Assembly (NCBI GenBank): GCA_016931495.1
Contig: JAFGER010000021.1
Location: forward strand, 1-43,630
Length of the DNA: 43,630 nucleotides
Origin: Chlorobiaceae bacterium
Lineage (GTDB): Bacteria > Bacteroidota > Chlorobiia > Chlorobiales > Chlorobiaceae
Direction: 5' to 3'
Both the position numbers and the translations under genes were made by a program. Every line of letters starts with the position of its first letter. Within the stretch, counting starts at the first letter, position 1. This document shows, in pieces, positions 2,518-18,323 of this stretch. The notes beneath the pieces were generated by a model. The model saw only the letters and a list, made by a program, of their open reading frames with translations, had not been told where the DNA came from and searched no databases.

Positions 2518-3768
2518 ATGGAGCTTCAGGAAAAAATCACCATCCTTTCGGGGGCGGCGCGCTACGATGCCTCGTGCGCTTCGAGCGGCAGCAACCGCGA
2601 GGGTTCGGCGGGCGGCACGGGTAACACCTCGCAGGGGGGGATCTGTCACTCGTGGGCGGATGATGGCCGCTGCATTTCACTCCTGAAAATCCTGCTCTCC
2701 AATGACTGCCGCTACGACTGCGCCTACTGCGTGAACCGCTCTTCAAACCCGGTGCCGCGGGCGTCCTTCACCGCGCGGGAGGTGGTCGATCTCACGATGG
2801 AGTTCTACCGGCGCAACTACATCGAGGGCCTGTTCCTCAGCTCGGCGGTCAACGTGAGTCCCGACCACACGATGGAAGAGATGGTGCGCGTGGCGGAGAT
2901 GCTGCGCAACGAAGAGCGTTTCGGCGGGTACATCCATCTGAAAATCATCCCCGGCAGTAGCCCGGAACTCGTTCGCCGCGCCGGACTTGCCGCCGACCGC
3001 ATCAGCGTCAACATCGAGCTGCCCTCCAGCGAGTCGCTGCAACGGCTCGCGCCGCAGAAGAAGAAGGAGGCGATTCTCGCTCCGATGAAGCTGATCGGTG
3101 CGGAGGCGGGTGTGAGCCTCGTCGAGCGGCGCAAGAGCCGCAAGGCTCCGCGCTTCGCCCCCGCCGGGCAGAGCACACAGATGATTATCGGCGCGAGTCC
3201 CGAAACCGACCTGCAAATCCTCCAGCTCTCGCAGGGGCTGTACCGCAAGATGAACCTCAAGCGCGTCTATTACTCCGCATTTGTCCCGGTCAACGAAGAC
3301 AACCGTCTGCCGGTGCTCTCGGCGCCGCCGCTCCTGCGCGAGCATCGGCTCTACCAGGCTGACTGGCTGTTGCGCTTCTACGGCTTTTCGCCGGAGGAGA
3401 TTCTCTCCGACGACGCGCCCAACCTCGACGAGTCGTTCGACCCCAAAACCGCCTGGGCGCTGCGCCATCCCGAATTTTTTCCGGTCGAAATCAACCGCGC
3501 CGACTACGCCGCCCTGCTGCGCGTGCCCGGCATCGGCGTCGTCTCCGCCAAGCGCATCATCGCCGCGCGGCGCTTCGCGCCCGTCACGCACGAGGGGATG
3601 AAAAAGATCGGCGTGGTGATGAAGCGCGCCAAATATTTCATCACCTGCTCGGGCCGCCCGTTCGACAAAATCGACCAGCAACCCGCCCGCCTCCGCCAAC
3701 GCCTCCTCCTCGGCGAAGGCAGCGAGCCGAAACAACCAAGGCAACTCGTGTTGCCGGGACTTGGGTGA
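2518..3768 (+). CDS. Putative DNA modification/repair radical SAM protein (rSAM_link_UDG type) with C-terminal helix-hairpin-helix
   Basis: This 416-residue protein has the radical SAM cluster motif C64-x3-C68-x2-C71 (CRYDCAYC), so it should bind a 4Fe-4S cluster and cleave S-adenosylmethionine. The glycine/serine-rich N-terminus (GAARYDASCASSGSNREG) and the C-terminal helix-hairpin-helix segment (RVPGIGVVSAKRIIAARRF) match the family annotated as putative DNA modification/repair radical SAM protein. That family is defined by genomic linkage to a DUF4130 protein, often fused to uracil-DNA glycosylase. Here the DUF4130 partner is the next gene, 155 bases downstream. Substrate and reaction are unknown; the HhH domain suggests DNA binding. 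The ATG has a promoter-like TATATT six bases upstream and no ribosome-binding site. Confidence 0.85.
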   Translation: MELQEKITILSGAARYDASCASSGSNREGSAGGTGNTSQGGICHSWADDGRCISLLKILLSNDCRYDCAYCVNRSSNPVPRASFTAREVVDLTMEFYRRNYIEGLFLSSAVNVSPDHTMEEMVRVAEMLRNEERFGGYIHLKIIPGSSPELVRRAGLAADRISVNIELPSSESLQRLAPQKKKEAILAPMKLIGAEAGVSLVERRKSRKAPRFAPAGQSTQMIIGASPETDLQILQLSQGLYRKMNLKRVYYSAFVPVNEDNRLPVLSAPPLLREHRLYQADWLLRFYGFSPEEILSDDAPNLDESFDPKTAWALRHPEFFPVEINRADYAALLRVPGIGVVSAKRIIAARRFAPVTHEGMKKIGVVMKRAKYFITCSGRPFDKIDQQPARLRQRLLLGEGSEPKQPRQLVLPGLG

Positions 3769-10032: not shown

Positions 10033-10263
10033 TTACGCACGCTCTTTTTGCAGGCGTTCGGCGAGCCACACTTTGATGATCGACTGGCGCGAAACGCCAA
10101 GCCGTTTGGCCTCCTTGTCGAGCGAGTCGATCATCCAGACCGGAAAATCGACATTTACCCGTTTCTGACGCTGGTTGACTCGCACCGCTTTTTCAAGGTC
10201 GAGATCGAGGGTGACGTCCTTTTCACCCGCGTCGAATTTCTGATCAAATTCTTGTGCTTTCAT
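10033..10263 (-). CDS. brnA: BrnA-type antitoxin (ribbon-helix-helix)
   Basis: This 76-residue protein is encoded downstream of and overlapping brnT by 20 bases, the usual toxin-first order of BrnTA modules. The C-terminal half (KRVNVDFPVWMIDSLDKEAKRLGVSRQSIIKVWLAERL) is a CopG/MetJ-like ribbon-helix-helix: one DNA-binding strand and two helices. The N-terminal acidic half should wrap and neutralise the toxin. The family also represses its own promoter, so autoregulation is likely. Confidence 0.85.
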   Translation of the reverse strand: MKAQEFDQKFDAGEKDVTLDLDLEKAVRVNQRQKRVNVDFPVWMIDSLDKEAKRLGVSRQSIIKVWLAERLQKERA

Positions 10264-10513
10264 AGAGCTGAATCTCCTCGCGGCGCGATCGCCGGACTGA
10301 AATGATGCGAATGCCGTGATTTCTGTAGGTGAAAATGGCTGACCAGTGCTTTTCCTGAATTTTACCGATTACCATGAAACGAGGCTCGTCAAGGGTTCTG
10401 ACTGGAAGCTGAATGAGATCGTCGTCCAGCCACAATTTCTGAGCCTCGATAAAATCGATACCGTGCTTCTGCTTGTTAGTTCTGCTTTTTTCCGGATCGA
10501 AATCAAAGACCAT
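10244..10513 (-). CDS. brnT: BrnT-type ribonuclease toxin
   Basis: This 89-residue protein matches BrnT, a RelE-fold ribonuclease toxin that blocks translation by cutting RNA. Family marks: FDFDPEKSRTNKQKHGIDF at the N-terminus, the PRFMVIGKI strand and the C-terminal RIISVRRSRREEIQLYE, which carries the basic and acidic residues of the active region. Start at ATG 10513. The AT-rich region just upstream (10514-10575) contains TATATAAAA on the transcribed strand and is the likely autoregulated promoter. Its length is standard and no lesion is visible. Confidence 0.88.
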   Translation of the reverse strand: MVFDFDPEKSRTNKQKHGIDFIEAQKLWLDDDLIQLPVRTLDEPRFMVIGKIQEKHWSAIFTYRNHGIRIISVRRSRREEIQLYESTRI

Positions 10514-11420: not shown

Positions 11421-11582
11421 GCTTTCACTTGTTGTCGTTGCCATGTCTTTTTTTGACAAGGTAACGCTCTGATGAAAATAGTGTCGAATCGGGCGCACGG
11501 TTTTCATTCCGTCGCGGTTGTTTCATATACTTCAGAAGCGAAATGTTTTTTTCTCAACCATAATCTTCAAGGAGCGCGCGAT

Positions 11583-11897
11583 ATGTTACAGTCAGTGAAG
11601 ACGGTGATGGTTGCCGCTCTCTGGGCCGGGCTGAGCCTGAGCGCTTATGCGGCGGAGAGGCCCTCCGCGGCGCTTGGCGAGAAGCTGTTCAACGATCCGA
11701 AGCTTGGCGGCGCAACCGGCACCAAGAGCTGCGGCAGTTGCCATCAGGACGGCGCGGGTATCGAGTTTTCTTACAAGAAGCCCAATCTTCCGCAGATCAT
11801 CAACATGTGCATCACTCGCGGGCTGGGCGGCGCTCCCCTGGCGGAGGACTCGGTCGAGATGAAGTCGCTGATCCTGTACCATCAGTCGTTAAGATAG
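11583..11897 (+). CDS. Small periplasmic class I c-type cytochrome
   Basis: This 104-residue precursor has a signal peptide (about residues 1-23, hydrophobic core VMVAALWAGLSLSAYA, cleavage near AYAA-ER) and one haem-binding motif C50-G-S-C53-H54. A C-terminal methionine (M93 in SVEMKSL, or M75) could be the axial ligand. The mature protein, about 80 residues, is a single-haem electron carrier exported to the periplasm. The start is fixed by AAGGAG (11569-11574) eight bases before the ATG. The stop lies ten bases before the convergent end of the B12 radical SAM gene, with no terminator between them, so antisense read-through is possible. Electron partners are unknown. Confidence 0.88.
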   Translation: MLQSVKTVMVAALWAGLSLSAYAAERPSAALGEKLFNDPKLGGATGTKSCGSCHQDGAGIEFSYKKPNLPQIINMCITRGLGGAPLAEDSVEMKSLILYHQSLR

Positions 11898-11906
11898 TTG
11901 CCTCGC

Positions 11907-13733
11907 TTATACAATCCGGGCGATGCCTCTCACGTAGAGATTGAGTACGAACTCTTTTGTCGCGCTGCCCGGATTCGCCTCCACTTCTTTCGTGATCTCC
12001 CGGAGCGTGACGCCATCGCCGTTGAGCAGCGTGACGATCCGGGACTGCCGGCCGTCGAGCTGGAACGTTTCGTTGTGGTCTTGCAGGACGAGTCCGTTGT
12101 CCGGAACTGACCGATGCAGCGCAACGTGCGGCGAGAGGGTGAAGCGGTGCTTTTCCGGGTCGATGAGCGGCGCGATGGCGTCGGCTTGCCGCTGGTACTG
12201 CTCGTTGCGCAAATGCCACGGGCGCGGGTTTTTTGAAAATCCGGAGAGCAGGTAGGCGTTCCACTCCAGTTGCTCGGGATCGTCGCCGGATCGCCACCGT
12301 TTGGCCAGCCGTGCGGCCTCTTTGCCGAGCTGCGTCCACGGCGCGTCGATTGGCTCGATGCGGATGCCGTAGCGGTCGGGGTGCATGAAGATGGCCGAGG
12401 CGGGTTCGAGCCTGAAGCGGTTGCCGAGGCTTCGGCGGGGCAGGTGCGTCGCGGGCAGGTTGTCGCCCGCAAGCTCCCGGTCGATCTGCCGGAAAAAGCG
12501 GATCGTGTCGAGCGCGTCGGCGGTCTGTTCGCCCGGAAAGTTGATGATGGTGGAGACGTGGATCGACAGCCCATTGCGGGTCGCCGCGACGATGTTCTCG
12601 CGCGCGAGGTCGAGATCGAGCTTTTTGTTCATCCTCCCGAGCACGGTTTCGGATGCGCTTTCGAGGCCGAACGTTACCCTTGTGAATCCCGCTTTTGCCA
12701 TCTTTCCTGCAAGCTCCGGGCGGAGGTGCTTCAGGTCGCAGAAGGCGAAGGTGAAGAGCGGTTGCAAATCGCTCGACAGAATCAGGTCGCAGAACTCCGA
12801 CAGCCACTCCTCGCTGAAGTTGATGAGGCTGTCGCAAATGTAGAAGAGGCTGATGCCGAAGCGTTGTTTGTACGCGGCGAGCCGTTGGAGGGCGTCTTGC
12901 GGGGTGATGTGACGGAAGCGCTTCCATATCTGCTTTTCCGAACAATAGATACAGCCGTTGACGCAGCCGCGCGAAAAAGAGACCGGAATCCCCTCGAAGC
13001 GCCGCCGCAGGTAGGCGTCGAAGGGCATGTTCGCGAACGGAAAGCCGCTGAAATCAGGCATCGGGAACTCCTCCGGTTTCAGCCACTCCCGGCGCGGCTC
13101 GTAGCGGAACTCGCCATCGACGAGCTGCGCCGCGCCCGCCACCAGTCCGCCATTTCCGCGGATCAGCTCCCGCGCCGTCAGCTCCCCCTCTCCCACGATG
13201 ACCTTGTCGGCCAGGGCGTTACCGAGCAGGAACCGCTGCACCTCTTCCGGAAACACCGCCGGGCCGCCGAACACGATCATCGCCTTCGAGCGTTCGCGCA
13301 ATTTGCGGGCGGCGAGCATCGAAACCCAGAGATTGCTGATGTAGGTGGAGAGCCAGATTTGCTCCGGCTCCGCTGCGATCAGCCGCGTGACCGCGCGTTC
13401 GAGAAAGAGGTCAAGCTTGTCGAAAAGCTGTTCAAGTCCATCCGCTTCAAACCGCTTGCGCGCCTCTCCGGGCGGGGTGAAGAGCGCCGCGAGGGTGAGG
13501 TCGGGGCGGTAGCCGATAAAGTTGATCATCCGCTCGTCGAGCGCCGCGCCGGGGCTGGCTCCGAGGCGATGGAGCTGGTAGTAGAGCGCCGTGTCTTCGA
13601 TGCTGAGCAACAGGTCGAAGTCGAACGCCTGACTTTCGACGCCCTCGCCGTCCAAAACGCTTTTCAGACAGGCCAGACCGAGCGGGAGCGTTTTGTCCGA
13701 AAAGCAGGGGAAAATGCTGAGCGCGATGGTCAT
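11907..13733 (-). CDS. B12-binding radical SAM enzyme with C-terminal PqqD-like domain (RiPP maturase)
   Basis: This 608-residue protein has three parts. Residues 1-190 resemble a cobalamin-binding domain (PLGLACLKSVLDGEGVESQAFD, WLSTYISNLW, IVFGGPAVF, VIVGEGE). Residues about 248-450 form a radical SAM domain with C257-x3-C261-x2-C264 (SRGCVNGCIYC) and a GLESASETVL segment. Residues about 530-608 (NETFQLDGRQSRIVTLLNGDG, VTLREITKEVE, FVLNLYVRGIARIV) look like a PqqD-type RiPP recognition element. It is the last gene of the operon and overlaps the YcaO gene by ATGA. Cobalamin radical SAM enzymes often methylate unactivated carbons, and a C- or P-methylation or ring-forming role on the precursor is inferred. 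The presence of PqqD-like binding is inference from pattern. Confidence 0.82.
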   Translation of the reverse strand: MTIALSIFPCFSDKTLPLGLACLKSVLDGEGVESQAFDFDLLLSIEDTALYYQLHRLGASPGAALDERMINFIGYRPDLTLAALFTPPGEARKRFEADGLEQLFDKLDLFLERAVTRLIAAEPEQIWLSTYISNLWVSMLAARKLRERSKAMIVFGGPAVFPEEVQRFLLGNALADKVIVGEGELTARELIRGNGGLVAGAAQLVDGEFRYEPRREWLKPEEFPMPDFSGFPFANMPFDAYLRRRFEGIPVSFSRGCVNGCIYCSEKQIWKRFRHITPQDALQRLAAYKQRFGISLFYICDSLINFSEEWLSEFCDLILSSDLQPLFTFAFCDLKHLRPELAGKMAKAGFTRVTFGLESASETVLGRMNKKLDLDLARENIVAATRNGLSIHVSTIINFPGEQTADALDTIRFFRQIDRELAGDNLPATHLPRRSLGNRFRLEPASAIFMHPDRYGIRIEPIDAPWTQLGKEAARLAKRWRSGDDPEQLEWNAYLLSGFSKNPRPWHLRNEQYQRQADAIAPLIDPEKHRFTLSPHVALHRSVPDNGLVLQDHNETFQLDGRQSRIVTLLNGDGVTLREITKEVEANPGSATKEFVLNLYVRGIARIV

Positions 13734-15541
13734 GGCTCGTGCCGGTTGCCAGTTGGGAAAAGTGTGGTCAGGCGGCGCTGGTCGGGCAGATTGGCGATCT
13801 GGCGCTTTTGAAGCCGCCTCGCCGTTTCGACAGTTTTCAGGAAATGGCAGCCGTCGCAGGCCGATTCATCCTCGGGAAGTTCGGTTTCACGCAGCGTCTC
13901 TTTGATGAATTCCGACGGCGCTTGCCTGCACCGGGCGGCCAGATCGACCACGCTGTCCGGGTAGAGCCGCCGCATTTGCGAGTCGATTTCCGCCGCATCG
14001 CAGCCTTCGTCCGAAAGCTGCTTGCCGTCCCCGACGCACCTGTCGAGCAGCGAAGCGTCACGCGGCGTTTCGTCGCCGAAAAGCCGCGCGAGTGCGGCGA
14101 GCAGCGCTGCTTCACGCCGCCGTGCGCTGCCGGGAAGGTTCGGGCACGCGAAGCCGGTCAGCACTCTGACGGGCGCGGGCAGGGCGATCCGTTTCAGGTT
14201 CCGTTCAAGCTCCATGATTCGTCGCAACCGTGTCATCTCCACGTCTCCGGAGCTTTGCAGGCGTTCGCTTTCCGCTCGAAGCTCAAGCAGCATGGCAAGT
14301 TCATTGCGGCCCGTGGCGTAGTTCACCTCGCTCAGGCCGGGCGCGTAGCAATAGACCGACGGGATGCCGAGCCACGAAACGTCACGAATGCAGAGCGCGT
14401 CCGTCCAGCTTGCGAAGCGTTCGAGCAGGGTTTCGACCGGACGGGCGGCCAGCTTGTCGCTCCAGATTTCCGGGAGCCGCTCCGGCGCTGGCTTGTGACT
14501 GGCGAAGAGCGATTTCGGCCACAAGCCGGTGCTCGACGCTTTGGCTGCGTAGTAGTTGGCGAAGCGCAGGCGGTGGCGTTCGTCGTCGGTCACTTCCGCG
14601 AACGGATCGTCAAGGCCGGAGAGCGGCAGGCCGTGGAAGTCGTCGCAACCGTCGAACAGCTCTTTCATTGCTCCGATGACCGCTTCCGCCAGCGTCGCGG
14701 CGGCCCCGAGGTTTGCGTTGTAGCGCTGCTGCTGGCGGTCGATGAGCAGCACGGCCACGACCGGAAATCCCGCGCCGAGCGAGCCGTCGAACAGGGTAAC
14801 GCTCGCGCCGCGCTCTTCGATAGCCTCGATGATCCGCGCGGCTTCAGTGTTCCGCAACAGCTCGCGGGGGATGAGCGGCAGCGGCGGCTCATCCAGAAAA
14901 ATCCGGTGAAAGAGGTGCCGCTCGCAGATTTCGAGCAGCGCTTTGGTGATGGCCTGTTCGAGCGTCCTTCCCGCCGCGCAGCCCGTGCTTCCGCTCGTAA
15001 AGAGCATCCGTTCGACCGGGCAGTGGCGAACTTTGCCGTCGAACGCCGAGTAAAAGGGTACGCACAGAAGTGCTTCGTCATCGACCGCACCGCTCGCGGG
15101 TATCTCGGCGCGCGGCATGAGATCGTTGTTTCCCGCCGAAGCGAACTGCTTTGCCTCGATCCATGCTTCATCCGGTGCGATGAAAAAATCCAAGGCTCCA
15201 CCCTGCTGGTCGAGGCGCTGGCGGCAGCGCTCCGGCAGGCGTTCGTAGCCGCTTTCCGAAGCGCAGGCGTGGCGGTAGCCGGAGATGAGGAAGTTGTTCT
15301 GGAGCCGCTCGAACAGCTCGCCGTACGCGCTCAAAAGCGAGGCTTCGGCGGTGATGCCTTGCCCGGAAACCAGCGGCGGCGAGTCATCATCCGGCGTTCC
15401 GCCCGCGAAAAGCATGGTGGTGAAAAACGGCAGTTCGCTGCCCTGCCGCGTCTGTTCGCAAACCTTCAGGCCTGTTGCGCGCAAGGCGGCTCGCATCTGC
15501 TCAAGCTCGCTCTTCATGGCGTGTCGATCCTGCTCAGCCAT
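13730..15541 (-). CDS. YcaO-domain peptide-modifying protein
   Basis: This 603-residue protein has the ATP-site blocks of YcaO cyclodehydratases: SAYGELFER (71-79), the GCAAGRTLEQAITKALLE segment leading to E204-ICER (187-208), and NLGAAATLAEAVIGAMKEL (277-295). YcaO enzymes activate a backbone amide with ATP to make azolines, thioamides or amidines. There is no ThiF/E1-like or TfuA partner in the window, and the C-terminus (TGNRHEP) lacks the PxPxP tail of azoline-forming members. The C-terminal half also carries a CDGC pair (562-565). It overlaps both neighbours (8 bases with the SPASM gene, 4 with the B12 gene), so all three enzymes should be made together. The likely substrate is the Cys-containing repeat peptide upstream. 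An alternative start is M9 (15517). Confidence 0.85.
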   Translation of the reverse strand: MAEQDRHAMKSELEQMRAALRATGLKVCEQTRQGSELPFFTTMLFAGGTPDDDSPPLVSGQGITAEASLLSAYGELFERLQNNFLISGYRHACASESGYERLPERCRQRLDQQGGALDFFIAPDEAWIEAKQFASAGNNDLMPRAEIPASGAVDDEALLCVPFYSAFDGKVRHCPVERMLFTSGSTGCAAGRTLEQAITKALLEICERHLFHRIFLDEPPLPLIPRELLRNTEAARIIEAIEERGASVTLFDGSLGAGFPVVAVLLIDRQQQRYNANLGAAATLAEAVIGAMKELFDGCDDFHGLPLSGLDDPFAEVTDDERHRLRFANYYAAKASSTGLWPKSLFASHKPAPERLPEIWSDKLAARPVETLLERFASWTDALCIRDVSWLGIPSVYCYAPGLSEVNYATGRNELAMLLELRAESERLQSSGDVEMTRLRRIMELERNLKRIALPAPVRVLTGFACPNLPGSARRREAALLAALARLFGDETPRDASLLDRCVGDGKQLSDEGCDAAEIDSQMRRLYPDSVVDLAARCRQAPSEFIKETLRETELPEDESACDGCHFLKTVETARRLQKRQIANLPDQRRLTTLFPTGNRHEP

Positions 15542-16808
15542 TCGTGAAATAGCCGGTGACGGCCTGCATGTTTTCGTGCATCAGCTCGAACAGGCCCACC
15601 ATCAACTGTCGCCGGTACGCGCAGAATCGTTTCGCGAGCGGCAGGTAGCAGGCTTCGGGCTGGCCGTGGCGGTAGCCGGGGATCACGGCGGGGCAGAACG
15701 AGAGGCAGATCGAGCTGACCGGGCAGCCGGCGCAGAAGCCGTAGCGCTCCTTCGAGCGTTGCTTGACCTCGTCGTCCCGCTGATCTTTCAGGTGTGCGCA
15801 CCACTGCGCCGAGCCGTTGCAATCGATGCTTTTGTAGCGCTCATTGCTGCCGCACGAGGGCGTCCTGATGCAGCCGTCGTTGTAATCCCCCGGCATGAAC
15901 ATCTTGCCGAGCAAGGTTTTGAGCATCTGCTCGTGAATCCTCTCGCCAGTTGTCTGACGGCGGAGCAGCTCCCGCATCAGTTCGAGCTGCCGGTCGGCCA
16001 GCTTGCCGTAGTAAGCCGAGAACTCCTCGCTGCTCTCGGCTCCGCAATCGGCGAACTCCAGCGGCTTGAGATAGAAGGAGTTCAGGCCGAGTTCCTCGCG
16101 GTTGAAGCGGAACAGCTCCATCAGCTCGCCTGGCTCGCCGATGACCGACAGCACCCCGCAACGCACGCCGCCCCGCCGCAACCGTTCGAGGTTGGCCGTG
16201 ATGGCGGTAAAGCTCCCCTCGCCATTTTTGAACGGGCGCATCAGGTCGTGCCGGTTCGCCGGGCCGTCGATGGTGACGCCGACCGTGACATCGTAGCGTT
16301 GCAGCGTCGCGAGAATCTGGTCGTTGAGCAGAGTCCCGTTGGACTGGAGGGCGAACGAAAAGTCGATCTCCGGAAAATCGCCGGTCAAGAAGGCGCAGAT
16401 GCGTTCGATCTGGCGGTGCATCAGCAGCGGCTCGCCGCCCTGAAAGGTGATCCGCACCTGCCGTTTGCCCTCGATCAGCTCGGTGAGCGTCTCGCAGATT
16501 TTTGTGACATCGGTGCCGCGCGCCCCGGAAATCTGCGTCAGCTCGGCGTACTTGCAATAGATGCAGCCCAGATTGCAGCGGTCGGTGATGAAGATCACCA
16601 CCTCCAGATAGCTATCGTCCGGCGCAGGCGGTTCCGGGGCGGCGCGTTCCGGAAACCGGGCCGCGATCCCGGCTTTCAGCTCTCCGGAGACGGGGCCGTC
16701 GAACAGTTGCCATTGGCCGCAACGGTTGTCGAGCGCGACAAGAAATTTGCCGCTCGCGGGGTGAAGAAAAGTCACGGGGCCGTCCTGTTCGATGCGGAAG
16801 GTGAGCAT
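15534..16808 (-). CDS. Radical SAM/SPASM peptide maturase
   Basis: This 424-residue protein has the cluster motif C78-NLG-C82-IY-C85, the FQGGEPLLMH motif (122-131) and QSNGTLLND. A Cys-rich C-terminal SPASM region follows, with C313, C319, C330, C337, C359, C362, C368, C372 and C387, enough for two auxiliary 4Fe-4S clusters as in anSME, PqqE and sactisynthases. It is also related to sulfatase-maturase-type enzymes, but the adjacent precursor and YcaO gene argue for RiPP chemistry such as Cys-to-carbon or carbon-carbon crosslinks. The start at ATG 16808 excludes an unconserved TTG extension to 16913 that would run through the hairpin. I recall a TIGRFAM pair CbpA/CbpB linked to a B12 radical SAM gene; membership cannot be checked here. 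Confidence 0.85.
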   Translation of the reverse strand: MLTFRIEQDGPVTFLHPASGKFLVALDNRCGQWQLFDGPVSGELKAGIAARFPERAAPEPPAPDDSYLEVVIFITDRCNLGCIYCKYAELTQISGARGTDVTKICETLTELIEGKRQVRITFQGGEPLLMHRQIERICAFLTGDFPEIDFSFALQSNGTLLNDQILATLQRYDVTVGVTIDGPANRHDLMRPFKNGEGSFTAITANLERLRRGGVRCGVLSVIGEPGELMELFRFNREELGLNSFYLKPLEFADCGAESSEEFSAYYGKLADRQLELMRELLRRQTTGERIHEQMLKTLLGKMFMPGDYNDGCIRTPSCGSNERYKSIDCNGSAQWCAHLKDQRDDEVKQRSKERYGFCAGCPVSSICLSFCPAVIPGYRHGQPEACYLPLAKRFCAYRRQLMVGLFELMHENMQAVTGYFTNG

Positions 16809-16878
16809 TGCGGGTACGGATTCGTCTGGCAGATCGGGATGCGATTGAAGGAGCGTTCTTGCCGTGCGCGGCAGATCG

Positions 16879-16913
16879 TTGCGGCGGGGGCGCTGGATGG
16901 CTCCCCGCCGCAA
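16879..16913 (-). terminator. Strong hairpin between RiPP precursor and enzyme genes (attenuator or mRNA stabiliser)
   Basis: A perfect 11-bp GC-rich stem: TTGCGGCGGGG (16879-16889, plus strand) is the reverse complement of 16903-16913, with a 13-base loop. It begins 13 bases after the precursor stop codon. No U-tract follows on the transcribed minus strand, so it is not a classic terminator. It could cause partial termination or protect the 3' end of a short precursor mRNA, giving more precursor than enzyme. This role is inferred. Confidence 0.65.
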
Positions 16914-16925
16914 GGATTGCAGGAG

Positions 16926-17150
16926 TTACTTCGCGTCTCCTTCTTCCGGCTCGGGTACCCAAGTATCGCAATGCATCGAGATTTTACCTGTGCGTTTCGA
17001 TGGTTCGTCTGGCGTCCAGGTGTCGCAGTGCATGGAGATTTTGCCTGTTCGTGATGATGGTTTGTCGGGATCCCAGGTGTCGCAATGCATTGAAATTTTG
17101 CCGGGGGTCAGCGTCAGTGTGCCGCTGTCAAAGACTGGTGAGGTGTTCAT
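16926..17150 (-). CDS. RiPP precursor peptide with three GKISMHCDTW repeats
   Basis: This 74-residue peptide has a short leader (1-16, MNTSPVFDSGTLTLTP) followed by three units of 19 residues with the identical core GKISMHCDTW at 17-26, 36-45 and 55-64. The spacers are DPDKPSSRT and TPDEPSKRT, and the tail is VPEPEEGDAK. The Arg-Thr/Gly-Lys junctions are possible cleavage points, so one precursor could yield three modified peptides. Over the 30-bp cores, copies 2 and 3 differ from copy 1 at three and five bases, all synonymous, which shows the peptide is conserved as protein. Each core has one Cys, and there are no other Cys residues. It is the first gene of the operon, with an AT-rich upstream region. 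Its own function (toxin, signal or cofactor precursor) is unknown. Confidence 0.88.
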   Translation of the reverse strand: MNTSPVFDSGTLTLTPGKISMHCDTWDPDKPSSRTGKISMHCDTWTPDEPSKRTGKISMHCDTWVPEPEEGDAK

Positions 17151-17483
17151 GATCTTTCAGTTTTATATGAGAAAAAAAGAAAATAACGATCACTAACTTT
17201 TAAATATATAAAAACATAGTTGTGGCGAAAACCTGTTCGATCAGAAGTGAGGTGGTTCTGCAGTTTTTGACGGTGACTATTGCGAGAAAACATAAAATTC
17301 AAAAATACAAAAGCTGGTTCCGGATTTCAGGACGTTCCGATCAAACGCAGTGATCGCTCCGGCGGGCGGGGCCGCGAGGGTTCGGCGTTGCCTGAAATTG
17401 AGCAGGAATGAATACATTGTTCCAACCAGGCAGCCCGGTGTGCAATCAGGCAGCCGTTACGGAAATTTCTGAATACCATCGTT
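17151..17483. other. Intergenic region with probable divergent promoters
   Basis: This 333-bp gap separates the RiPP precursor (minus) from the SDR gene (plus). The 100 bases next to the precursor are very AT-rich (runs such as TTTTAAATATATAAAA at about 17199-17214), which is promoter-like, but no single -10/-35 pair stands out. The rest turns GC-rich. No ORF, RNA gene or riboswitch could be recognised. Confidence 0.5.
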
Positions 17484-18323
17484 ATGTTTGAAAAACAACG
17501 CATCAGCATTCTCGGTTGCGGCTGGCTCGGGTTGCCGCTCGGACGTTTTCTGGCGGGCGAAGGCTTCGCCGTCAAAGGCTCCACGACGAGCGAAACGAAG
17601 CTTGTGCGACTCAAGGAGGCAGGGATCGAGCCGTTCCGGATCGTCCTCGCCGACTCCATCGAAGGCGATATCGCCGCCTTCCTCGACAGCGACATTCTGG
17701 TGCTCGACATTCCGCCGGGGCGCGGCGATGAGGTGGTCGAGCATCACGTCGGCCAGATTTCTCTGCTGATCGACGCCCTTGCCGATTCTCCGGTCAGGCA
17801 GGTGCTGTTCGTCAGCTCGACTTCGGTCTATCCCGCCGCCGGGCGCGAGGTGGTCGAGGCGGATGCCGAGGATCCCGAGGCTGCCGATTCGCTGGCGGGC
17901 CGCGCCCTGCTTTACGCCGAGGAGATGCTGCGCTCGGAGTCCTCCTTCAGCACCACGGTGCTGCGCTTCGGCGGGCTGATCGGCCCCCGGCGCAATCCGG
18001 CGGAGTTCATGCAGCGCATGACGGAGATCGCCAACCCCGGCCATCCGGTGAACTTCATCCATCTCGACGACTGCATCGGCATCATCGCCTCCGTCATCCG
18101 GCAGGGCGAGTGGGGCGAGGTGTTCAACGCCTGCGCGCCGCTCCATCCGACGCGGGGCGAAATCTACAAGGCTGCCGCCGAGAGCCACGGACTCGCCGCA
18201 CTGCCGGAGGAGCCGTGCAGCAGCAGCCACTTCAAGATCGTCAACAGCGACAAGCTCGTCCAGAAACTGGGGTACACCTTCCTGCACCCCGACCCGCTCG
18301 CGATGGCGCGGGGAGGCAATTGA
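17484..18323 (+). CDS. NAD(P)-binding SDR-type oxidoreductase/epimerase (YeeZ-like)
   Basis: This 279-residue protein opens with a Rossmann motif of the YeeZ type, ISILGCGWLGLPLGRFLAGEG (about 7-27). A conserved LVLDIPPG strand follows, then LFVSSTSVYPAAG with a serine-rich catalytic region, LRFGGLIGPRRNP and VNFIHLDDCIG. This fits extended short-chain dehydrogenases/nucleoside-diphosphate-sugar epimerases. The classic YxxxK dyad is reduced to Y-A-E-E, so catalysis may differ from true epimerases. Substrate unknown. It is soluble. It is transcribed away from the RiPP operon and ends at a palindromic repeat. No clear ribosome-binding site precedes the ATG. Confidence 0.75.
   Translation: MFEKQRISILGCGWLGLPLGRFLAGEGFAVKGSTTSETKLVRLKEAGIEPFRIVLADSIEGDIAAFLDSDILVLDIPPGRGDEVVEHHVGQISLLIDALADSPVRQVLFVSSTSVYPAAGREVVEADAEDPEAADSLAGRALLYAEEMLRSESSFSTTVLRFGGLIGPRRNPAEFMQRMTEIANPGHPVNFIHLDDCIGIIASVIRQGEWGEVFNACAPLHPTRGEIYKAAAESHGLAALPEEPCSSSHFKIVNSDKLVQKLGYTFLHPDPLAMARGGN

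What the first reader, a model, noticed from the sequence alone, without database searches (positions are those of the whole stretch)
11907..17150. RiPP operon: triple-repeat precursor with SPASM radical SAM, YcaO and B12 radical SAM enzymes
Seen: a 74-residue peptide with three identical GKISMHCDTW cores, followed on the same strand by three overlapping genes with radical SAM/SPASM, YcaO and B12-radical SAM motifs. Known: each enzyme class modifies ribosomal peptides. Inference: one pathway installs a radical crosslink or thioether, an ATP-dependent backbone change and a methylation or ring at each core, giving up to three small products per precursor. I know of no characterised product with this core. 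A TIGRFAM CbpA/CbpB system linked to a B12 radical SAM gene may be the same family, but I cannot check.
Basis: partly seen in the sequence, partly recalled or inferred. Interest (0 to 1): 0.92.

Follow-up and report, generated by a model that had tools for sequence, protein, structure and literature searches.

The report
Repeat-core peptide with three tailoring enzymes
A small cassette in some green sulfur bacteria appears to make a short ribosomal peptide in several copies and then alter it chemically with three different enzymes; the product has not been seen.

Summary
In detail: a 74-aa peptide with three GKISMHCDTW repeats, then a radical SAM/SPASM enzyme, a YcaO protein and a B12-type radical SAM enzyme on one strand. 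It is a self-contained RiPP-type cassette. The four genes, in this order, occur in 6 of 86 Chlorobiaceae genomes. In five Chlorobaculum genomes it sits between a cytochrome c and an epimerase gene; in 10 of 16 without it these lie 29-43 bp apart. The sixth, in another genus, has it elsewhere, enzymes 40-52% identical. All 18 core copies read SMHCDT[W/Y]xP; between the five Chlorobaculum precursors the cores show pS 0.63 and pN 0, the rest 0.43 and 0.10. No listed NCBIfam model reaches its cut-off; the CbpA/CbpB link fails. The B12 enzyme probably ends in a PqqD-like leader-binding domain. The YcaO's only PDB hit is E. coli YcaO, recently shown to make a backbone thioamide without TfuA; these six genomes lack TfuA. 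Proposed: crosslink, thioamide and C-methyl on each core. The chemistry is inferred, not shown.

The parts
16926..17150 (-). Precursor peptide, 74 aa: short leader (about residues 1-19, with FDSGTLTLTPG) and three cores
17073..17093 (-). Core copy 1, SMHCDTW (followed by DP)
   Evidence: residues 20-26
17016..17036 (-). Core copy 2, SMHCDTW (followed by TP)
   Evidence: residues 39-45
16959..16979 (-). Core copy 3, SMHCDTW (followed by VP)
   Evidence: residues 58-64
15534..16808 (-). Radical SAM/SPASM peptide maturase, 424 aa from the conserved ATG; CxxxCxxC (C78, C82, C85) and seven cysteines in SPASM spacing (C319, C337, C359, C362, C368, C372, C396) invariant in six members
   Evidence: the SPASM spacing rule is recalled; C-terminal part alone has no NCBIfam hit
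13730..15541 (-). YcaO protein, 603 aa; only PDB hit at E 0.001 is E. coli YcaO; E75, E78, R79, E199, E202, R203, E290 (E. coli numbers) kept in six members
11907..13733 (-). B12-type radical SAM enzyme, 608 aa, CxxxCxxC at C257, C261, C264; closest NCBIfam model TIGR03975 (RiPP C-methyltransferase), below cut-off
11910..12152 (-). C-terminal domain (residues 528-608) of the B12 enzyme, probably PqqD-like (RRE-like), proposed leader-binding domain
   Evidence: weak by sequence

Best explanation
A self-contained RiPP cassette of green sulfur bacteria. The ribosome makes a precursor with a short leader and two to four copies of the core SMHCDT[W/Y]xP. The leader (FDSxTLTL-like) is probably held by a PqqD-like domain at the end of the B12 enzyme. 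The SPASM enzyme makes a radical crosslink in each core; my first guess is a His-Cys-Asp three-residue cyclophane (His C2 to Asp C-beta), with a Cys thioether as the main alternative and the aromatic W/Y as another possible ring partner. The YcaO protein, related to the TfuA-free thioamide-former of E. coli, replaces one backbone oxygen by sulfur, possibly using sulfide directly, in which these organisms live (recalled). The B12 enzyme adds a C-methyl group. Housekeeping proteases and exporters would finish the product, or it stays in the cell. Shown: the genes, their recurrence as a unit, selection on the core. Supported but not shown: leader domain, RiPP role. Inferred only: each reaction (crosslink about 0.6, thioamide about 0.45, C-methylation about 0.6) and every residue assignment. 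The confidence given is for the RiPP cassette with all three enzymes acting on the cores, not for the exact reactions.
For: Four genes in fixed order in 6 of 6 clusters found in 86 Chlorobiaceae genomes. One insertion site in 5 Chlorobaculum genomes, and the same site empty (cytochrome c and epimerase genes 29-43 bp apart, same strand) in 10 of 16 without it, so the four genes come or go together. 18 cores; a scan allowing four mismatches finds no degenerate copy; between the five Chlorobaculum precursors the aligned cores have pN 0 and pS 0.63, the rest pN 0.10 and pS 0.43. Core number is 2, 3 or 4; the G041 precursor has a leader-like stretch before each of its two cores (by eye). SPASM enzyme: best models PapB 105 and YhhB 102 bits, matched by 6 of 6 members; best PDB relative ChlB 77.6 bits. 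YcaO: E. coli YcaO the only PDB hit at E 0.001; seven pocket residues kept in 6 of 6; P-x-P in the last 25 residues in 0 of 6; TfuA in 0 of 6 genomes; E. coli YcaO thioamidates uL16 Met82 with ATP, Mg and sulfide, and E. coli has no TfuA (PMC13063428: abstract, sections 28 and 30, passages). B12 enzyme: TIGR03975 best in the window member and matched by 6 of 6; Foldseek OxsB, TokK, MgmA, and, in alignments of 80 and 89 columns, PqqD 5sxy (prob 1.00, rmsd 3.1, E 0.055) and ThcOx 5lq4 (prob 0.99, rmsd 4.1, E 0.075).
Against: No listed NCBIfam model reaches its cut-off (shown: best 25 of 69 for the SPASM enzyme, 5 of 5 for YcaO, 25 of 28 for the B12 enzyme) and the precursor matches none. B12-binding Pfam is below cut-off. 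Both AlphaFold models are poor (mean pLDDT 55.0 and 58.7, six sequences each), so the Foldseek results rest on weak models; residues 521-608 of the B12 enzyme are better (block means 68-89). The Foldseek table gives no aligned range, so placing the PqqD match on this domain is inferred from its length and topology. By sequence that domain gives hhalign probability 13% against two PqqD proteins, no Pfam PqqD hit and no NCBIfam hit. The YcaO differs from E. coli at 184, 187, 191, 195 and 286, though the last four vary in other Bacteroidota YcaOs too (E191 in 7 of 13, R286 in 6 of 13). E. coli YcaO reads folded uL16, not a short peptide. No protease, exporter or immunity gene in the cassette. No product known.
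Confidence: 0.8

Rival explanations
1. RiPP cassette, but the YcaO protein makes a thiazoline at the invariant Cys, or an amidine, as in bottromycin, instead of a thioamide.
For: Every core has one Cys; bottromycin YcaO proteins act without a partner (PMC8442711 section 11); B12 radical SAM plus YcaO also meet in bottromycin clusters (recalled).
Against: No proline-rich tail, named in PMC8442711 as characteristic of azoline-forming YcaO (it is absent from 5 of 13 other Bacteroidota YcaOs too, so this is weak); no E1-like partner gene in the cassette; the nearest solved relative makes a thioamide.
Confidence: 0.25
2. RiPP cassette in which the SPASM enzyme makes a thioether from Cys (ranthipeptide or sactipeptide type) rather than an aryl-carbon ring.
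For: PapB (Cys-Asp S-C-beta links; PMC11002830 passages) is the best NCBIfam model (105 bits) and the core has Cys and Asp.
Against: Cys and Asp are neighbours, whereas PapB rings span several residues (recalled); YhhB (102 bits) and ChlB, both cyclophane formers, are as near.
Confidence: 0.3
3. The precursor is not cut into small products: it is a small protein whose modified repeats act in the cell, for example as a metal-binding or redox peptide.
For: No protease, exporter or immunity gene in a cassette that comes and goes as a unit; Met, His, Cys and Asp in each core are possible metal ligands; up to four copies per chain.
Against: General proteases and exporters often serve RiPP pathways (recalled); copy number of 2-4 suits cutting as well.
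Confidence: 0.25
4. The YcaO protein acts on a ribosomal protein (uL16 or uS12) as in E. coli and only happens to lie in the operon.
For: Its closest solved relative is E. coli YcaO.
Against: Found only with the cassette (YcaO HMM at E 1e-15: 6 of 394 Bacteroidota genomes, the same six); less acidic than E. coli YcaO (pI 5.2-5.6 against 4.4), and PMC13063428 ties the acid pI to uL16 and non-acid members to RiPP-like contexts.
Confidence: 0.04
5. Not a functional system: repeats and enzymes drift by chance.
For: Patchy distribution, 6 of 86 genomes.
Against: Core pN 0 with pS 0.63 between genomes; open enzyme frames and invariant cluster cysteines in 6 of 6.
Confidence: 0.01

Closest known systems
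Triceptide (three-residue cyclophane) pathways: YhhB, HaaB, ChlB
   Same: SPASM-type radical SAM enzyme and a small peptide with an aromatic residue and a partner at i+2 (H-C-D here); ChlB is the best PDB relative
   Different: 102 bits against a cut-off of 445 for YhhB; no YcaO or B12 enzyme is named in the triceptide passages read
Ranthipeptides: PapB/freyrasin
   Same: Radical SAM/SPASM enzyme, Cys and Asp in repeated cores; best NCBIfam model in the window member (105 bits)
   Different: Cut-off 340 not met; Cys and Asp are neighbours here; two more enzymes
E. coli YcaO (uL16 thioamidation, PMC13063428)
   Same: Only PDB hit; similar length (586 and 603 aa); no TfuA; seven pocket residues kept
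   Different: 24% identity; the E. coli enzyme acts on a folded ribosomal protein, here the gene lies beside a precursor peptide
Thiovarsolins and other YcaO-TfuA thioamidated RiPPs
   Same: Proposed thioamide; repeated cores in thiovarsolin (recalled)
   Different: No TfuA in the six genomes; two radical SAM enzymes added
Bottromycins
   Same: Partner-free YcaO plus B12 radical SAM C-methyltransferase (recalled)
   Different: Two YcaO there, one here; SPASM enzyme here; single core with follower there (recalled)
CbpA/CbpB (TIGR04163)
   Different: 71.4-71.8 bits against a cut-off of 375; the precursor matches no NCBIfam model

Membership tests
RiPP biosynthetic cluster (broad sense) | Small precursor gene with conserved core beside peptide-modifying enzymes, found together | tested here: met
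RiPP biosynthetic cluster (broad sense) | RiPP recognition element or other leader-binding domain | tested here: inconclusive
   Foldseek PqqD and ThcOx hits; hhalign 13%, no Pfam PqqD, no NCBIfam hit
RiPP biosynthetic cluster (broad sense) | Modified product observed | not testable with these tools
   needs mass spectrometry
CbpA/CbpB | SPASM enzyme above TIGR04163 cut-off | tested here: not met
   71.4-71.8 of 375 bits
PapB-type ranthipeptide | Enzyme above NF047865 cut-off | tested here: not met
   105 of 340 bits
Triceptide, YhhB type | Enzyme above NF041707 cut-off | tested here: not met
   102 of 445 bits
Triceptide (mechanistic sense) | Aromatic residue i and partner i+2 in core | tested here: met
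   H-C-D in 18 of 18, W/Y-x-P in 18 of 18; a sequence match only
RiPP B12 radical SAM C-methyltransferase TIGR03975 | Score above cut-off | tested here: not met
   87.2 of 281.85 bits
YcaO superfamily | PF02624 above gathering score | tested here: met
   138.2 bits, cut-off 25.7
E. coli YcaO (NF040716) | Score above cut-off | tested here: not met
   94.6 of 700 bits
YcaO-TfuA thioamidated RiPP | TfuA gene present | tested here: not met
   0 of 6 genomes at E 0.01
Azoline-forming YcaO (TOMM) | Proline-rich C-terminus | tested here: not met
   P-x-P in last 25 residues 0 of 6, against 8 of 13 other Bacteroidota YcaOs and 0 of 1 E. coli
Azoline-forming YcaO (TOMM) | E1-like or ocin-ThiF partner | tested here: inconclusive
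   none in the four-gene cassette; the rest of the genome was not searched for one
Bottromycin | Two YcaO proteins | tested here: not met
   one YcaO match per genome in the six
Bottromycin | Macroamidine in product | not testable with these tools
   needs the product

The most novel reading that the evidence does not exclude
A new RiPP class of green sulfur bacteria in which one heptapeptide core carries a His-Asp cyclophane, a backbone thioamide made by a TfuA-free YcaO straight from environmental sulfide, and a C-methyl group, giving a compact metal-binding or cofactor-like product in two to four copies per precursor.
Probability: 0.12. Interest if true: 0.85.

Novelty: new variant of a known kind. 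Interest (0 to 1): 0.62.

Why it matters
It joins three peptide-modifying enzyme types on one short invariant core, in phototrophs for which the four literature searches that named them together with YcaO or RiPP radical SAM terms returned 0 papers (held library only). It is a small, complete, four-gene system in which each reaction can be tested separately, and a direct test of whether TfuA-free YcaO thioamidation, reported for archaeal YcaO proteins (PMC6511847 passage) and E. coli uL16 (PMC13063428), also works on a RiPP.

Tried and rejected
CbpA/CbpB kinship: rejected on score. Precursor hit in G016: chance. Cytochrome c gene as part of the system: rejected, it stands at the same place in genomes without the cassette and has no match in the 13.7 kb around the G041 cassette. 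Plasmid or phage carriage: no plasmid record covers 80% of the SPASM enzyme and none matches the YcaO at E 1e-10; 114 viral stretches matched a pattern, none encodes a relative. Wider spread: the genome-contig scan found two Chlorobi loci (such a scan finds close relatives only); a YcaO HMM found no further member at E 1e-15 in 394 Bacteroidota genomes. Other phyla were reached only by the genome contigs, plasmid and viral scans. A dead YcaO: considered because several pocket positions differ from E. coli, rejected because they vary in other YcaOs. N-terminal RRE in the SPASM enzyme: model too poor to say. Anti-phage role: PADLOC hits only viperin models, on the shared radical SAM core. Promoter and terminator scan of 16880-17500: nothing, which matches the shuffles. 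Rfam: two tRNAs, both outside the cassette.

The codon test was redone. In one search the cores were picked by a pattern that fixes the amino acids, so its low pN (0.016, pS 0.87) is partly built in; one search aligned whole precursors between genomes, anchored cores on the HC of the first, left out G041, and gave pN 0 against 0.10 outside. Its pairs are not independent, so no P value is given. One search also corrected my count by eye of P-x-P tails in other YcaOs from 7 to 8 of 13.

Full report
Observation. Minus strand, 17150 down to 11907: a 74-aa peptide with three exact GKISMHCDTW repeats, then a radical SAM/SPASM enzyme, a YcaO protein and a B12-type radical SAM enzyme. Pfam finds Radical_SAM (59.8 bits), YcaO (138.2) and Radical_SAM (65.7) above cut-off; B12-binding is below its cut-off (26.6 of 32.1). 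The listed SPASM ORF starts at a TTG, but the start that lines up with the other members is the ATG at 16808, giving 424 aa. The enzyme ORFs overlap by 8 and 4 bases, as in translationally coupled genes (inference).

Spread. The precursor query matched 7 of 86 Chlorobiaceae genomes at E 0.01 (G000, G002, G004, G005, G015, G041 and, weakly, G016); the SPASM enzyme matched the first six and no other at E 1e-40. G016 is taken as chance: a frame with three stops. In all six the order is precursor, SPASM, YcaO, B12 enzyme. The sixth, G041, is in another genus, with 52, 40 and 51% identity in the three enzymes. A YcaO HMM found these six and no other at E 1e-15 among 394 Bacteroidota genomes. The genome-contig scan with the SPASM enzyme found two loci, both Chlorobi. 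Plasmids and viral contigs gave no close relative.

A unit that comes and goes. In the five Chlorobaculum genomes the cassette lies between a small cytochrome c gene and an epimerase gene, whose matches are 5,580-5,905 bp apart, and reads against both. Of the 16 Chlorobaculum genomes without it, 10 have both flank genes as neighbours, 29-43 bp apart, same strand and contig (one of them, G003, is 9% contaminated); in the other six the cytochrome gene was not found at E 1e-8, so they say nothing. A third neighbour, a metallo-hydrolase gene, was found in 8 of 21. The insert thus holds the four genes; no protease, exporter or immunity gene travels with it. In G041 the surroundings differ.

Selection on the core. 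The six precursors hold 3, 4, 3, 3, 3 and 2 cores, 18 in all; a scan allowing four mismatches in seven finds no degenerate copy. SMHCDT is the same in 18 of 18, the seventh residue is W in 17 and Y in 1, the eighth varies (D 7, T 6, V 4, Q 1), the ninth is P in 18. With whole precursors aligned between the five Chlorobaculum genomes, core codons have pN 0 and pS 0.63, the rest pN 0.10 and pS 0.43 (ten pairs, not independent). The residues before the core are not conserved. The G041 precursor has a leader-like hydrophobic stretch before each of its two cores (by eye).

SPASM enzyme. CxxxCxxC and seven cysteines in SPASM spacing are invariant in six members (spacing recalled). Best NCBIfam models: PapB 105 (cut-off 340), YhhB 102 (445), sulfatase maturase 90 (349), HxsB 88 (370); CbpB 72 (375). 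None of the 25 shown of 69 is met, and the C-terminal 138 residues alone hit none at E 0.01. Best PDB relatives by profile: ChlB 77.6 bits, then anaerobic sulfatase-maturating enzyme 64.8; Foldseek with a poor model (pLDDT 55.0) gives the same two groups, then CteB and TigE. PapB makes Cys-Asp thioethers and YhhB joins His or Tyr to Arg (PMC11002830, passages); ChlB is called a multiple cyclophane synthase in a reference title (PMC12636437, passages). The core offers H-C-D for a three-residue ring; W/Y-x-P is a second candidate.

YcaO. The only PDB hit at E 0.001 is E. coli YcaO (90 bits). E75, E78, R79, E199, E202, R203 and E290 are kept; S184, N187, E191, Q195 and R286 are not, but 187, 191, 195 and 286 also vary among 13 other Bacteroidota YcaOs, and 184 is Ala in 8 of those 13. 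The residue roles are recalled, apart from E202. P-x-P in the last 25 residues: 0 of 6 here, 0 of 1 E. coli, 8 of 13 others. TfuA: 0 of 6 genomes, while the control search rang in Methanosarcina. E. coli YcaO was shown in 2026 to thioamidate uL16 Met82 with ATP, Mg and sulfide; E. coli has no TfuA; the enzyme needs full-length uL16; members of its group that are not highly acidic lie in RiPP-like contexts; and the authors note that some thioamide-forming YcaOs without such helpers come from high-sulfide habitats (PMC13063428: abstract, sections 28 and 30 in full, passages of others). The present proteins have pI 5.2-5.6 against 4.4. Green sulfur bacteria live in sulfide (recalled), so a TfuA-free thioamidation is plausible; it is an inference.

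B12 enzyme. Best model TIGR03975, RiPP C-methyltransferase, 87 of 282 bits, matched by 6 of 6 members. Foldseek with a poor model (58.7) gives OxsB, TokK and MgmA. Residues 521-608 are better modelled (block means 68-89): four short strands, three helices, one strand. Foldseek alignments of 80 and 89 columns to PqqD 5sxy (prob 1.00, E 0.055) and ThcOx 5lq4 (prob 0.99, E 0.075) fit this domain, though the table gives no range. By sequence the link is weak: hhalign 13% against two PqqD proteins, no Pfam or NCBIfam hit. I take it as a probable leader-binding domain.

Judgement. RiPP-type cassette: about 0.93. With all three enzymes acting on the cores: 0.8. Each reaction as named: 0.45-0.6. It is a new variant of a known kind: RiPP pathways with radical SAM and YcaO enzymes are known; this core and these enzyme subfamilies reach no listed NCBIfam cut-off, and the searches that named green sulfur bacteria or the trio of enzymes returned 0 papers in the held library, which lacks most subscription journals. 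Of the other searches only listings and the passages cited were seen.

Noticed in passing
10033-10513 (-): BrnT-type toxin (Pfam BrnT_toxin, 86.2 bits) with a following CopG-like antitoxin slightly below its cut-off (27.1 of 28), outside the cassette.
   Followed up: no
11472-11897 (+): Small cytochrome c-like protein (Pfam CCP_MauG, 28.0 of 25.6 bits) whose gene directly precedes an epimerase gene in 10 of 16 Chlorobaculum genomes that lack the cassette; the cassette splits this pair in five genomes.
   Followed up: yes
L019 10942-11169 (-), genome G041: Two-core precursor in which a leader-like hydrophobic stretch stands before each core, unlike the single leader of the other five (by eye).
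   Followed up: partly
L018 7921-8208 (-), genome G005: Four-core precursor; its first core ends in Tyr instead of Trp, the only change in 18 cores over the first seven residues.
   Followed up: partly
2518-3768 (+): Another radical SAM protein with a helix-hairpin-helix match below cut-off (26.1 of 27), outside the cassette.
   Followed up: no
L067, L068 (genomes G024, G051): Two other Chlorobiaceae genomes carry a different YcaO (open frames of 755 and 759 aa) with a P-x-P tail and a far higher Pfam score, so a second YcaO system exists in the family.
   Followed up: no
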